Source: Verrucomicrobiaceae bacterium (GTDB lineage: Bacteria > Verrucomicrobiota > Verrucomicrobiia > Verrucomicrobiales > Verrucomicrobiaceae). Taken from it: a DNA stretch of 64,000 bases. Both the position numbers and the translations under genes were made by a program. Below the pieces are notes generated by a model. The model was given only the letters and a program-made list of their open reading frames with translations. It did not search any database and was not told the DNA's origin. Shown one piece after another: positions 1 to 4,931 of this stretch (within the stretch, counting starts at the first letter, position 1; every line of letters starts with the position of its first letter). The stretch covers positions 1 through 64,000 of the forward strand of contig JAIXYN010000032.1 in assembly GCA_027490195.1 (NCBI GenBank), written 5' to 3'.

Positions 1-491
1 AAGTGCCTCGCGGCCTTCAACCGGCGCACTTCCATTTCCTGGTGATCTCTTCTCTTGCTCATCCAGCCATTCTACAACAGTTCTCGACCTTTGTCAGCCT
101 ATTATGCAAGTCTCAATAATGATATTAGAATTTACAGGTGGGGTCATACCTTTGTTTGCAAGTTCTTCTATCAATTTAATGTCCTGTTTGTTGATCCTCG
201 GCATGCACTTAACTAGAAACACTTTAAAATAATTGGCGAACAATTTTGCTGTGTCATAAGTTAATATATTTGTGGTAACCCATAACATTAAACAATCTAA
301 CTAGGTGGTGGTGTCAATGGGTCTTGATAGACCAGTCCTGGAATGAAGGAAATGAGTCCTTCATTTGCCGTGATCTGGTCGTTCGACAAATCCCAGCGCA
401 GATTTGGCTAGTTTAGCCGCAAAGAAAGATGCTAGGCTTAACGCGCTAGGGCGAGATTAGCGAAGCAATAAATACGCCTTATGCAGATAAT
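1..491. other. Gene-poor, AT-rich left edge
   Basis: Apart from one doubtful 64-codon ORF, no protein family is recognisable in any frame. The composition is clearly more AT-rich than the rest of the window. It borders an ISL3 transposase remnant, so it is probably decayed accessory DNA. Confidence 0.4.
94..288 (-). CDS. Doubtful small hypothetical protein (64 aa)
   Basis: This is an ATG-started 64-codon ORF in AT-rich DNA. The protein is mildly basic with no domain I recognise and no clear membrane segment. No ribosome binding site or promoter is obvious. It could be a chance ORF or the tail of a lost gene. It is listed because codon content is not obviously antisense to anything else here. 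Confidence 0.15.
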   Translation of the reverse strand: MLWVTTNILTYDTAKLFANYFKVFLVKCMPRINKQDIKLIEELANKGMTPPVNSNIIIETCIIG

Positions 492-605
492 ATGCCAGCC
501 AGAAAGCAGAAAGGGGGGTATTTGCAGCAGGCCCAAATCGTTTTCGACCGCTTTCATGTCATGCAACTGGCAGGCGAAGCGGTGGATGCAGTGCGCAAGC
601 AGTGA
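492..605 (+). pseudogene. ISL3-family transposase remnant
   Basis: The plus-strand frame reads AQIVFDRFHVMQLAGEAVDA and then VRKQ before a TGA stop. This matches the conserved catalytic-core segment of ISL3-family (DDE_Tnp_ISL3) transposases, where the Asp of FDRFHV belongs to the DDE triad. Only about 37 codons survive of a protein normally near 400 residues. There is no upstream or downstream transposase sequence and no terminal inverted repeat that I can pair with it. It abuts the BlaI remnant, which suggests an old insertion-deletion junction near base 605-650. The family call is from motif recognition. Confidence 0.65.
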
Positions 606-647
606 CGTGATGCAGGAGCCGACGTGAAAGGTGCACTGTGGGCCTTG

Positions 648-877
648 CGTGGCAATGTAGGCGGCGAGGGCCTGGGTGAGGGAACCGCCGAAGAAGGTGC
701 CGATGACGCGACTGAGGGGGGGACTGGCCGACCTCTGCCCGAGAATGGATGGGCTGGTAGATGAACTAGCGGCCTTCCTGGCGGTGAGTCCATGCCTTCG
801 AGGATTTGTGAGAGCGTGGCCTCGCCTTGGGCAAAGACGAGATCCATCACCTCCCGTTCACGGCGGCTCAGATGGGC
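648..877 (-). pseudogene. BlaI/MecI/CopY-family repressor remnant, frameshifted
   Basis: On the minus strand LSRREREVMDLVFAQGEAT is the typical start of a BlaI/MecI winged-helix repressor. The frame then breaks: FIYQPIHSRAEVGQS lies in a second frame and FFGGSLTQALAAYI in a third, both typical middle and C-terminal BlaI pieces. An internal stretch is deleted, at least two frameshifts are present, and the C-terminus runs into the ISL3 remnant. Intact relatives are about 120-130 aa and usually sit beside an M56 sensor peptidase, which is absent. It is almost certainly non-functional. Confidence 0.7.
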
Positions 878-943
878 GATTTTCTGCGTAGGCTGAAAAT
901 TCAGCCTTTGGCCGAGCGCGTAGCCTTGCACCTGGTAACCATG

Positions 944-1112
944 GCAACTTTTTCACGCCTCAAAATGTTGCCGCTTTTTCTGGCTCACCTTCCAAAGATT
1001 GCAATCAGCTGCATAACCACGCTCGCTGTTGCCAATACTAGCCCTTTTGAAAGGCGCAAAAGGCGAAATGTTGCATGTTGCACACCCTAGGCTTGCAACA
1101 TGGCAACATTTT
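944..1112. repeat. ATGTTGC dyad module, copy 1
   Basis: The module has two palindromic parts. A hairpin-like half (ggcaac...aaatgttgcc, 944-974) is followed about 90 bp later by an imperfect dyad at 1066-1112, aaatgttgcatgttgca...tgcaacatggcaacatttt. The spacer holds ccttccaaag, which is also present in copy 2. The whole module recurs at 1812-1984. The dyad resembles a protein-binding or recombination site; its function is unknown. Confidence 0.6.
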
Positions 1113-1811
1113 GGGTGGGATGGGCTGAATGACTGAGGAAGCGGGTGAGAGAGCATCTGCGACTTGGCGCGCAGGTAGGCATTTCCGTGGATTACGCTCT
1201 CCCGCGCCCCTTCAGGGCGCGGCCATGCGCGCTGGGTGGTGTGGACGCCGTCTGTCCCAGGGCAGCACTCGCCAAGGCTCGGCCCGCCCTGGGCTGAATC
1301 CTTAGCACCTTTGGTGCGGCCAGGCAACCGTGCGCGGGGCATCTCATGAGTCGGCAGACAGCCTGTCATGGGGACACTGCTTCAATGGGGGCCATGAATT
1401 CATCCGTATATCTAATTATGCTGGTCTGTGTGTGTATTTGCCTCGGTGAGCTTACATGGATTATAATTACGGCTAGTATGCTCCCCTTAGCCACAAACAT
1501 GTAGTCGAAGCCTTGGAATGCTGCGGGTTCAAACTCACGGCATCGTCCGGGAGGGCTCCGGTCCTCCGGCGCTTTTAGCGCGTCCTCAGGCGCACAGAAA
1601 GCTCCAGAGAGCTGAATCATTGGTTGATTCGCTTCGCTCAGCATCCGAGCAGCCTGCAGCTGTCTATTTGACTTCGGCGGTCTTCGACCCGCTGCACTCC
1701 GGTTCCAAAACGCTGCCGCGCTATAGAGTATTCATATGCATGGCTACGGCTCAGGGTGGCCAGGGGTGCAGGGCCTGCCATGAACCCATTTCGGTTTAAA
1801 TTTTATATCAT
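1113..1811. other. Non-coding stretch between ATGTTGC modules
   Basis: ORFs here overlap on both strands and none resembles a protein family. Several GC-rich hairpins are visible, for example cccagggc at 1256-1263 paired with gccctggg at 1286-1293. No tRNA-like or other structured RNA was recognised. The stretch is bracketed by the two repeat modules and may be the gutted interior of an element. Confidence 0.4.
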
Positions 1812-1984
1812 TCACGGCAACATTTTCACTCCTGAAATGTTGCCGTGATCTAAGCCTATTCCTTCCAAAGTTTTCCTTCAGTTGCTATGAAATGCTACTT
1901 CAGGTCACCAAATGCCTGAATTTTTCGAGGTGAAAGTAAAATGTTGCCATGTTGCATGTCTAGGGTGTGCAACATGCAACATTT
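1812..1984. repeat. ATGTTGC dyad module, copy 2
   Basis: This starts with a perfect 14-bp hairpin (tcacggcaacattt at 1812-1825 paired with aaatgttgccgtga at 1835-1848) and ends with the 47-nt dyad at 1938-1984. That dyad is nearly identical to the reverse complement of the 1066-1112 dyad. The 90-nt spacing between the two parts is conserved with copy 1. Confidence 0.6.
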
Positions 1985-2033
1985 CCCGCCTCAGTGTGGC
2001 GCATGCTGACTGATAACTCGGTTCACGCGCTCA

Positions 2034-3203
2034 TCACCAGCTCGCCACCACCTCATACGCATACCCGCGCAGATACTCAGTCTCTGGAATCGTCGCCAGA
2101 ATCGGATGATCCGGCCGCTGCGTGTACGTTGCCACCCGCCGCAGTGTCTTCTTCGCATCCACCGCCGCATCCGTGATGCTGCTGTGGAATTCTTCGGCGC
2201 TGACGTGGTGGGAGCAGGTGAAGGTGGCGAAGATGCCGCCGGGCTCGAGCATCTTCATGGCGCGGAGGTGGATCTCCTTGTAGCCGCGGAGGGCATCGCG
2301 CACGGAGCTTTTGGTTTTGGTGAAGGAGGGGGGATCGAGGATGATGAGGTCGTAGCGGGCGGCGGCGGCTTCGTTGCGCTTGAGGAAGTCGAAGCAGTTT
2401 TCGGCGATGCAGTTGATCTGCACACCGGCGATGGCGGCGTTTTGTTTGGCGACTTCGGTGGCGGATTCGCTGATGTCCACGGCGGTGACTTCGCTGGCTC
2501 CGGCGAGGGCGCAGGCCTGGGCGAAGCCGCCCTGATTGGAGAAGCAGTCGAGGACGCGGCGGCCTTTGGCTAGGGCGGCGACATGCTGGTAGTTATCTAG
2601 CTGATCCAAGTAGAGGCCCGTCTTCTGGCCTTCGAGGAGGTCGGCGTGGAAGGCGCTGCCCTGGTAGCGAACGACGAAGGGGGCGGGGGACTCGCCACTG
2701 ACGACGCCTTTGATCTGCTCCATGCCTTCAGCTTTGCGGACGGCACCTTCGTTGCGCTCCACGATGCCGCGTGGCTTGAGGGTGTCGTTGAGGGCCTGGA
2801 TGATGAGGTCCTTCCGCAGATCCATGGCAAGGGTGAGGGTCTGGATGACGAGGAAGTCGCCGTAGCGGTCGATGATGAGGCCGGGGAGGCCGTCGGATTC
2901 GCTCCAGACGATGCGGCAGAGATTGAGGTCCACGCCGGCCGCTTCGCGCACGGTGATGGCGCGCTGGATGCGGCGGGTGAAGAAGTCGAGGTCGAGGTCC
3001 TGGCGGCGGTAGGAGAAGAGGCGTGCAGAGATCTGCGACTGGGGATTGTAGATGGCGCTGCCAAGGGGCTTGCCGCGGACGTCTTGGAGATGGACGACAT
3101 CGCCGGGCTTGGGATCGCCGAAGCGCTTCTGGATTTCAGTGGCGTAAACCCATAGGTGACCGTGGAAAAGGCGGGCGCGGGGCTGGACGGTGAGGGTGGG
3201 CAT
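2034..3203 (-). CDS. rlmI: Class I SAM-dependent rRNA methyltransferase, RlmI-like
   Basis: The protein probably methylates a cytosine of 23S rRNA (E. coli RlmI makes m5C1962). An N-terminal PUA-like segment (about residues 1-75) is followed by an EEHEE-type middle domain and a Rossmann methyltransferase domain. SAM motif I reads VLDCFSNQGGFAQACA near residue 220. The LDPPSFTK motif lies near residue 292 and a TCS cysteine motif near 331. The length of 389 aa matches the family (about 390-400). ATG start at 3203; AATGACGAAT-type repeats sit immediately upstream. The exact target base is inferred from homology only. Confidence 0.88.
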   Translation of the reverse strand: MPTLTVQPRARLFHGHLWVYATEIQKRFGDPKPGDVVHLQDVRGKPLGSAIYNPQSQISARLFSYRRQDLDLDFFTRRIQRAITVREAAGVDLNLCRIVWSESDGLPGLIIDRYGDFLVIQTLTLAMDLRKDLIIQALNDTLKPRGIVERNEGAVRKAEGMEQIKGVVSGESPAPFVVRYQGSAFHADLLEGQKTGLYLDQLDNYQHVAALAKGRRVLDCFSNQGGFAQACALAGASEVTAVDISESATEVAKQNAAIAGVQINCIAENCFDFLKRNEAAAARYDLIILDPPSFTKTKSSVRDALRGYKEIHLRAMKMLEPGGIFATFTCSHHVSAEEFHSSITDAAVDAKKTLRRVATYTQRPDHPILATIPETEYLRGYAYEVVASW

Positions 3204-3255
3204 GGTTGGGGAGGTGGTTGATAGACAGGGCTAGGAGGGTAGAGAGGTGGGGCAG

Positions 3256-3944
3256 AATGACGAATGAGTAAATCCGAATGACGAAATAAGCCCGAAGGCC
3301 GAATGGGGGACTGGGGCTATTGGTGGCTAGACCTTGGTCATTATACTGCCGCGCATCACCAACTTTCAAAAGAAACGCGTCTCGAACGGAGTGGGTGCTG
3401 TGCGCCCGTCTATCGGCCACGACAAGGACGGCGGACCTTTTTGAGCGACTGCGATGCTACAGACCCGAAATCACGGACCCGCACAGCGGTTCCCTACCAG
3501 CGCTGAGGCACGCGCTGCTCTGGATGGTAGAGATGCGCTGTGCGCGTCCCTGGAATCCTTCGTCCCAGCACGGGCTGCGGCCTCATCGTTCTCCCCCTTT
3601 TCAAACTTCTCTGACTTCTGCTGTCGAAGGCGCCAAGGACGGCGAACCTTTTTCAGCGCCTGCGACGCGACAGACCCGGAATCACGGACCCGCACAGCGG
3701 TTCCCTACCAGCCTTGCGGCACGCCTTGCTCTGGGTGGTAGGGATGCGCTGTGCGCGTCCGTAGAATCCTTCGTCCCAGCACGGGCTGCGGCCTCATAGT
3801 TCTCCCCCTTTTGAAACGCCTCCGACTCCGGCTGTCGTGGGTATGTCGGTGCATCGCCCATCTGCCGAGCAGTCATTCGCAGAATGAAAGTGGGTGATGC
3901 GTGGCAAGTCTATTTCGACATTCGGGTTTACTCATTCGTCATTG
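3256..3944. repeat. Outer 25-bp inverted repeat around a nested element
   Basis: aatgacgaatgagtaaatcc... at 3256-3280 is repeated inverted at 3920-3944 with one mismatch over 25 bp. It belongs to the AATGACGAAT family: the longer 34-bp version starting at 3256 is exactly matched, inverted, at 44499-44540. The pair brackets the 3352-3901 element, giving a nested palindromic block between the rlmI-like and alcohol dehydrogenase genes. Confidence 0.65.
3352..3901. mobile_element. MITE-like non-coding element, copy A
   Basis: Terminal inverted repeats are cgcatcaccaactttcaa (3352-3369) and its near complement atgaaagtgggtgatgcg (3884-3901). Inside are two tandem copies of a unit of about 200 bp. 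Each unit carries a long hairpin (cagcggttccctaccag paired with ctggatggtagagatgcgctg). A second element with one unit and the same ends lies at 48841-49188. No transposase is encoded, so it is a MITE-like or REP-like passenger. ORFs across it are repeat artefacts. Confidence 0.6.
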
Positions 3945-4931
3945 CTAAAGGCTCACGACTGCCTTGATCACCCGGGACTCCGGCAGCAGCCAGGTGTCCA
4001 TTTGATCCGGGAGTTCGCTGAATTTGCAGCGGTGGCTGATCCAGGGACGTGTGTCTATCTGGCCGGACTGGATCATGGCTAGGATGCGGGGGAAGTCGGA
4101 AGCGAGGGCGTTGCGGCTGGCGAGGAGGGTGAGCTCGCGGCGGTGGAAGAGGGGATCGTCCAGGGGGACGGGCTCTTTGGTGATGCCGACGTAAACGATG
4201 CGGCCGGTGAAGCGGGCGTAGCTCAGGGTGGCGGCCATGGATGCGGGATTGCCGGTGGCATCGAAGACGATCTGGAAGGCGGGGGTGTCTGGCAGGGTAT
4301 CGATGACGGTGACGCCGGGGTAGTGCTGCTGGACGAAGGCGCGGCGTGCGGGGTTGAGTTCAAGAATGGTGATGGGGGCACCGGTGGCGCGGGCGAATTC
4401 GAGGACGGTGAGGCCAATGGGGCCGGAGCCGATGATGAGGACATCGTCTGCGGCGGTGACCTGGGCGCGGTTCACGGCATGGCAGCCGATGGCGAGGGTC
4501 TCGACGAGGGCGAGTTGCTCGAAGCTGAGGGCGTTGCAGGGATGGAGCTTGTGCGCAGGCAGGACGATGCGCTCGCGCATGCCGCCATCGCAATGGACGC
4601 CGAGGACCTGGAGGGTTTCGCAGCAGTTGGTGCTGCCGCGCTGGCAGGCGTGGCAGGTGCCGCAGTTGAGGTAGGGCTCGACGGAGCAGCGGTCGCCGAC
4701 GCGCAGATGGGTGACGTTTTCACCGATGGCGAGGACTTCGACGCCGAGCTCATGGCCGAGGATGCGGGGGAACTCGATGAAGGGCATTTTGCCAAGGTAG
4801 CCGCTGAAGTCGGTTCCGCAGATGCCGATGGCGCGGATGGCGACGAGGGTCTCGTTTGGGCCGGGGGCGGAGGCTTCGGGGAGCGTGGTCCAGGCGAAGG
4901 TTTTGGCGGCGGTGAGGGTGAGGGAGAGCAT
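3945..4931 (-). CDS. Zinc-dependent medium-chain alcohol dehydrogenase
   Basis: An NAD(P)-dependent oxidoreductase of the MDR superfamily, of the sorbitol/threonine dehydrogenase type. Catalytic-zinc motifs ICGTD (near residue 39) and GHELG (near 60) are present. The structural-zinc cluster CGTCHACQRGSTNCC follows near residue 90. The nucleotide fold GSGPIGLTVLEFA begins near residue 167. At 328 aa it is slightly short for the family (about 340-350). The substrate cannot be read from sequence. It stands alone on the minus strand and its stop codon abuts the repeat block at 3944. Confidence 0.85.
   Translation of the reverse strand: MLSLTLTAAKTFAWTTLPEASAPGPNETLVAIRAIGICGTDFSGYLGKMPFIEFPRILGHELGVEVLAIGENVTHLRVGDRCSVEPYLNCGTCHACQRGSTNCCETLQVLGVHCDGGMRERIVLPAHKLHPCNALSFEQLALVETLAIGCHAVNRAQVTAADDVLIIGSGPIGLTVLEFARATGAPITILELNPARRAFVQQHYPGVTVIDTLPDTPAFQIVFDATGNPASMAATLSYARFTGRIVYVGITKEPVPLDDPLFHRRELTLLASRNALASDFPRILAMIQSGQIDTRPWISHRCKFSELPDQMDTWLLPESRVIKAVVSL

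What the first reader, a model, noticed from the sequence alone, without database searches (positions are those of the whole stretch)
944..1984. Paired ATGTTGC dyad modules bracketing a gutted segment
Each module has a palindromic half, a 90-nt spacer with shared sequence (ccttccaaag) and a 47-nt dyad. The 47-nt dyads at 1066-1112 and 1938-1984 are near-identical as reverse complements. Long dyads with a gttgc/gcaac core and a 10-nt spacer look like recombinase or regulator sites. The roughly 800 bp between them codes for nothing recognisable.
Basis: partly seen in the sequence, partly recalled or inferred. Interest (0 to 1): 0.5.

Follow-up and report, generated by a model that had tools for sequence, protein, structure and literature searches.

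The report
Hairpin-ended gene cassette, decayed copy
The two palindromic modules are the two ends of a small movable gene cassette found at different places in several related Verrucomicrobia, often carrying one or two phage-defence-type genes; the copy in this window has lost its gene, and its ends are copies of a hairpin that sits just behind a DNA-primase and helicase gene pair.

Summary
In detail: the 47-nt dyads match as reverse complements at 45/47, and each belongs to a module (short palindrome, ~90-nt spacer, dyad). The modules lie in direct order while the dyads are inverted. They are the ends of a non-autonomous cassette. A second copy in the same genome (contig C11) brackets a complete candidate defence pair (PDC-M31A/B). 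Relatives carry more copies around Fic, TIR, BlaI/M56, DMP19 and HNH genes, and at least one insertion is absent from relatives. I collected 63 dyads: nearly all share GTTKCC-type repeats on both arms, with compensatory changes, and a loop with CTA or TTA. All ten close repA helicase genes found in the genus have this dyad or a degenerate form just after their stop codon; a CHC2-type primase gene precedes repA where checked. My preferred reading is a hairpin replication-origin module of an integrative element, copied to both ends of satellite cassettes that use primase/RepA in trans. Cassette status is well supported. The origin function is inferred, and no recombinase was found. The window copy is decayed: ~700 bp between its end modules with no recognisable gene.

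The parts
940..972 (.). short palindrome (P1) of the left module, GGCAAC...GTTGCC pointing inside-out relative to the dyad arms; outermost conserved feature on this side
   Evidence: starts 123 nt from the dyad, as in homologous elements
973..1065 (.). ~90-nt spacer of left module with box ccttccaaag and TTGCC/TGCCA-type short repeats
1066..1112 (+). 47-nt dyad, left end (AAATGTTGCATGTTGC-ACACCC-TA-GGC-TTGCAACATGGCAACATTTT); outer half ending CC|TA conserved across family
1113..1811 (.). decayed cargo; no Pfam match in its ORFs; pieces match other DNA of relatives at 72-81%
1812..1848 (.). short palindrome (P1) of the right module, perfect 14-nt arms
1849..1937 (.). ~90-nt spacer of right module with ccttccaaag box and short repeats
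1938..1984 (-). 47-nt dyad, right end, inverted copy of the left dyad (45/47)
780..906 (-). remnant of a BlaI-type repressor gene just outside the left module; 86.6% to the BlaI gene inside the homologous cassette of relative G012
2034..3203 (-). host gene flanking the right end (RlmI-type SAM methyltransferase); five relatives' loci show no dyad there

Best explanation
The modules are the two ends of a small non-autonomous mobile gene cassette (shown by comparison). Each end is a copy of one composite site: a 46-50 nt hairpin dyad, about 90 nt with short repeats, and a short inside-out palindrome. The resident copy of that site lies directly behind a CHC2-primase / RepA (AAA_25) helicase operon, probably derived from an integrative element (position shown, origin of the operon inferred). 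Most likely (inferred) the site works as a hairpin origin: RepA binds the GTTKCC repeats and opens the DNA, and the primase starts at CTA/TTA in the loop. Cassettes carrying it can then be copied in trans as satellites and re-inserted by a recombinase that was not identified. In this window the cassette inserted beside rlmI, next to BlaI and transposase remnants, and its cargo has since decayed. Whether RepA/primase acts on these dispersed copies, and how they insert, is not shown.
For: Same ends around different cargo in the same genome and in relatives. C11 cargo is a full PDC-M31A/B pair (E 1.7e-109 and 2.3e-70); others match HNH nuclease, TIR and Fic models. Two genes flanking the G022 C1 element are adjacent and dyad-free in three relatives. 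All 10 close repA homologues in the genus have a dyad or degenerate dyad shortly after the stop. A distant Verrucomicrobium with integrase and fused primase-RepA shares the 20-nt outer half-site in the same place. 63 dyads collected; in the 60 parsed, arm bases co-vary (Fisher 5.5e-14 and 1.2e-7) and the trinucleotide at the loop is CTA 55, TTA 4, GTA 1. CTA and TTA are known DnaG start sites (PMC5204125). pRN1 has an essential stem-loop behind its replication gene, conserved in structure but not sequence (PMC4234260). P1 lies on the same side of both dyads in all 10 non-nested pairs where it is found. The 7 genomes in which my searches found dyads are all repA-positive (7 of 10 repA+ against 0 of 37 repA-, p=1.9e-6).
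Against: No direct evidence of replication, circles or priming. The related genomes probably form a clade, so the co-occurrence and the loop conservation are not independent observations; some counted dyads are the repA-adjacent ones; the search patterns miss some arm types. Bracketing by two inverted dyads is equally what a transposon or site-specific element would show. Some dispersed dyads have arms unlike the resident repA-adjacent dyad of the same genome. Nested and orphan dyads (G000 C29, G017 C19, G000 C11) are not fully explained.
Confidence: 0.42

Rival explanations
1. Site-specific recombination cassette. A circle carrying one palindromic site (b'-TA-b plus spacer and P1) inserts at TA in the centre of a resident palindrome (a-TA-a' plus spacer and P1), giving a-TA-b ... 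b'-TA-a' with the accessory part in direct repeat, as with serine- or tyrosine-integrase att sites. The elements lack an integrase (CIME-like) and are moved in trans.
For: In 17 pairs the centres are asymmetric within each dyad (2.3/6 self-complementary beside TA) but outer halves join into palindromes (5.1/6), as do inner halves (4.2/6). G011 C66 swaps even the arm type (GTTTCC outer, GTTGCC inner). The accessory P1 part is in direct repeat (10/10 pairs), as circle insertion predicts. A tyrosine integrase lies upstream of primase-RepA in G030 and an integrase-like gene in the distant L049 element.
Against: Palindromic joins follow automatically if the right dyad is the reverse complement of the left, so they are not independent proof. 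No integrase recognised inside any cassette. Empty sites in relatives of the G022 C1 insertion hold no palindrome. No free circle or empty resident palindrome was seen.
Confidence: 0.3
2. MITE-like remnant of a conventional DDE transposon: the dyads are terminal inverted repeats, possibly with TA target duplication, moved by a transposase encoded elsewhere.
For: Inverted ends, dispersed copies, no transposase recognised inside, nested insertions. TA lies at a fixed place in the dyad.
Against: The conserved end on one side extends beyond the dyad to P1, the accessory parts are in direct rather than inverted order, and the ends are individually palindromic. No autonomous version was found.
Confidence: 0.17
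3. Regulatory or terminator hairpins or regulator operators that happen to flank accessory genes.
For: Several dyads sit just behind stop codons; the repeats could bind a regulator.
Against: They occur in pairs around different cargo, at loci where related genomes have nothing, and lack obvious T-runs; the composite 150-nt module is more than a terminator.
Confidence: 0.06
4. RAYT-mobilised REP/REPIN palindromes.
For: Palindromic repeats, and Y1 transposases are common in these genomes.
Against: None of the 12 Y1_Tnp loci fetched has such a dyad within about 1.5 kb. These dyads bracket cargo and follow repA instead.
Confidence: 0.03

Closest known systems
pRN1-type stem-loop origin (Sulfolobus plasmids; PMC4234260)
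   Same: stem-loop shortly behind the gene for a helicase/primase replication protein; structure kept while sequence varies
   Different: there the primase is archaeo-eukaryotic and the helicase SF3; here CHC2 primase and AAA_25 RepA; here two inverted copies bracket cargo; no function tested
IncQ/RSF1010 ssiA/ssiB and IncQ satellite plasmids (PMC6925257)
   Same: separate helicase RepA and primase, initiation sites used by the primase, non-autonomous satellites kept by replication proteins in trans
   Different: no RepC or mob genes recognised, chromosomally integrated copies, different sequences, satellites only inferred
Integron gene cassettes / attC sites
   Same: small cassettes of one or two accessory genes bounded by structured palindromic sites; composite sites in direct order
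   Different: arms read GTTKCC...GGMAAC, not RYYYAAC...GTTRRRY; no integron platform seen beside the sites; site-specific integrase not shown
RIT elements (recombinase in trio; PMC3414803)
   Same: ends described as an inverted repeat with an overlapping palindrome
   Different: no recombinase trio in any of the elements; cargo is accessory genes
CIMEs / transposase-less (MITE-like) elements
   Same: non-autonomous, bounded by end sites, carrying passenger genes
   Different: mobilising partner unknown; end architecture matches none that I know

Membership tests
pRN1/IncQ-like primase-helicase hairpin origin | hairpin directly downstream of the replication gene(s) | tested here: met
   10 of 10 close repA loci, two of them (G030, G001) with degenerate dyads; also distant L049
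pRN1/IncQ-like primase-helicase hairpin origin | primase and hexameric-helicase genes adjacent | tested here: met
   PF01807 CHC2 zinc finger 2.1e-8 and PF13481 AAA_25 3.1e-18 in C11; the gene pair is seen in several relatives
pRN1/IncQ-like primase-helicase hairpin origin | site supports replication or priming | not testable with these tools
   needs experiment; loop CTA/TTA in 59 of 60 is only consistent with it
Integron attC | R''/R' boxes RYYYAAC ... GTTRRRY | tested here: not met
   arms are GTTKCC-type ... GGMAAC-type in the 60 dyads parsed; attC box consensus from memory
Integron attC | intI-type integrase with attI nearby | not tested
   not searched genome-wide; none recognised among the ORFs beside the sites examined
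REP/RAYT | palindromes flank or neighbour a Y1 transposase gene | tested here: not met
   12 PF01797 loci fetched have no dyad
RIT element | three adjacent tyrosine recombinase genes between the ends | tested here: not met
   ORFs of the cargoes examined, read by eye with Pfam on the main ones
DDE transposon / MITE | target-site duplication at the ends | tested here: inconclusive
   flanks of the G022 C1 element against empty relatives too diverged to call
DDE transposon / MITE | autonomous parent with transposase and same ends | tested here: inconclusive
   none seen, but search limited to dyad patterns in about 47 genus genomes and the loci fetched
CIME / integrase-dependent cassette | att-like sites in direct order at both ends, no integrase inside | tested here: met
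   (accessory part direct in 10/10 pairs); no integrase recognised in cargo; that the sites are att sites is not shown

The most novel reading that the evidence does not exclude
A previously undescribed cassette system in Verrucomicrobia: defence and other accessory genes are packaged between paired hairpin-origin modules and copied and spread in trans by a resident primase-RepA replication operon, which also marks the main insertion hotspot.
Probability: 0.28. Interest if true: 0.78.

Novelty: new variant of a known kind. Interest (0 to 1): 0.55.

Why it matters
If right, it is a gene-capture route for phage-defence genes that needs neither a transposase nor an integron integrase inside the cassette, and the module gives a simple sequence handle (GTTKCC repeats, CCTA loop, P1 about 125-150 nt away) for finding defence cassettes that current tools may miss. 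Even on the conservative reading it documents a patchy family of non-autonomous mobile elements with complex ends and a recurrent hotspot behind a replication operon.

Tried and rejected
Rfam scan of 1-4000: only sub-threshold hits. Y1/RAYT loci: no dyads. Viral contigs: three patterns with no match and one chance hit inside a phage structural gene; RepA protein absent from viral contigs and plasmids, primase absent from phages. Covariance model of the dyad over 388 genomes of the phylum: hits only in the genus. Pattern over the genome collection: 11 hits, mostly looking like chance apart from two contigs of the G012 genome and L049. I first took the palindromic outer and inner joins as proof of attB x attP recombination, then noted they are automatic when the right dyad is the reverse complement of the left, so they are only used together with the direct order of P1. 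No dyad was found in the loci of the two more distant RepA relatives scanned, G011 C65 and G022 C12. Literature searches found no description of this element.

Full report
What is in the window. The 47-nt dyads at 1066-1112 and 1938-1984 are reverse complements at 45 of 47 positions. Each has a short palindrome (940-972 and 1812-1848) about 90 nt to its left, with spacers sharing ccttccaaag. Both dyads and the right-hand short palindrome fold far better than shuffles; the left one less so. The composite modules are therefore in direct order while the dyads are inverted. The sequence between the modules has no recognisable gene. Just outside the left module is a BlaI-type repressor remnant, 86.6% identical to the intact BlaI gene inside a homologous cassette of relative G012.

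It recurs with other cargo. In the same genome, contig C11 has the same pair of ends (L005 4616-4663 and 6839-6886, short palindromes at 4754 and 6988) around two genes that match the complete candidate defence pair PDC-M31A/B. Relatives of the same genus carry pairs around BlaI+M56 (G012 C6), DMP19 (G017 C14), a pentapeptide-TIR protein (G017 C9), a Fic protein (G022 C5), HNH nuclease and an unknown protein (G011 C66), or nothing recognisable. The two genes flanking the G022 C1 element are adjacent with no dyad in G003, G067 and G010. The rlmI gene beside the window copy has no dyad in its locus in five relatives examined. So these are inserted elements, and the window copy is a decayed one.

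Anatomy from 63 dyads, 60 of them parsed. Arms are two GTTKCC-type hexamers per side. The variable base co-varies between arms (outer 58 of 60 paired, Fisher 5.5e-14; inner 50 of 60, 1.2e-7). The centre keeps ...CC-TA (rarely CT-TA) at five, sometimes four, nt from the inner hexamer; the other half varies in length. The trinucleotide ending at that TA is CTA in 55, TTA in 4 and GTA in 1 of 60. In nearly all pairs the conserved CC-TA half faces outward; G017 C1 and one G017 C19 pair are ambiguous or direct. The inside-out palindrome P1 lies on the same side of both dyads in all 10 non-nested pairs in which it was found, typically 122-126 nt out at one end and 123-149 nt at the other (91 nt at both ends in G017 C9; background 4% of 190-nt stretches). 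In the other non-nested pairs no P1 was detected by this pattern. The Fic locus shows nested pairs whose orthologous dyads change arm sequence yet mostly stay palindromic.

Link to a replication operon. In C11 the left dyad lies 31 nt behind the stop of an AAA_25 helicase gene that follows a CHC2 zinc-finger primase gene. All ten close homologues of this helicase in the genus are followed by a dyad; in G030 and G001 it is degenerate. A distant Verrucomicrobium (L049) has an integrase-like gene, small DNA-binding-type proteins, a fused primase-RepA protein and then a dyad whose outer half is identical over 20 nt to that of the window (these L049 genes were identified by eye). The seven genomes in which my searches found dyads are all repA-positive (p=1.9e-6). 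That figure is inflated by shared ancestry, by counting repA-adjacent dyads, and by the limited patterns used.

Mechanism. Shown: non-autonomous inserted elements with composite ends, and homology of those ends to a site behind primase-RepA. Inferred: the site is a hairpin origin used by RepA and primase. The precedents are the pRN1 stem-loop behind its replication gene (PMC4234260), the IncQ ssi sites and IncQ satellites (PMC6925257), and CTA/TTA as DnaG start trinucleotides (PMC5204125). Not shown: how cassettes excise and insert. A site-specific recombination reading (circle with its own palindromic site inserting at TA in the centre of a resident palindrome) accounts elegantly for inverted centres with accessory parts in direct order and remains the main rival. 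The palindromic joins alone do not prove it, because they follow whenever one dyad is the reverse complement of the other.

Known families. RAYT/REP, RIT (no trio in any cargo) and integron attC (boxes differ) were considered and the tested features were not met. No match in plasmids, phages or viral contigs. I therefore call it a new variant of a known kind: a transposase-less mobile gene cassette with a new type of end.

Noticed in passing
window 3256-3943: 33-nt inverted repeat (94%) bracketing a tandem pair of ~210-bp units (89% alike) with CGCACAGCGGTTCCCTACC palindromes; the same palindrome recurs in relatives (L149 4977-5037 and 12075-12131, L150 1044-1105): a separate repeat family.
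   Followed up: no
window 1256-1318: weak Acido-Lenti-1 RNA match (19.9 bits, below gathering 37); the same stretch is 78-81% similar in L101 and L115/L205.
   Followed up: partly
window 484-602: open frame QIVFDRFHVMQLAGEAVDAVRKQ looks like an ISL3-type transposase fragment (recognised by eye, not by a profile).
   Followed up: no
L198 (own genome, C29) 621-2207 and L199 820-2301: nested dyad pairs at a conserved locus behind a VWA-domain-like gene, with further inverted repeats ACTTCCACAGTTTCCACAGTTTCAACGGGGG inside; a Fic gene is readable in G001, G027 and G022, decayed in G000 and G029.
   Followed up: partly
L005 8928-8972 and 9346-9385 (own genome, C11): two unpaired right-type dyads of other arm types downstream of the HNH gene, suggesting older cassettes whose left ends were lost.
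   Followed up: no
L069 5892-6635 (G017 C19): six dyads of different arm types within 750 bp, apparently nested pairs around ~240 bp without a gene.
   Followed up: no
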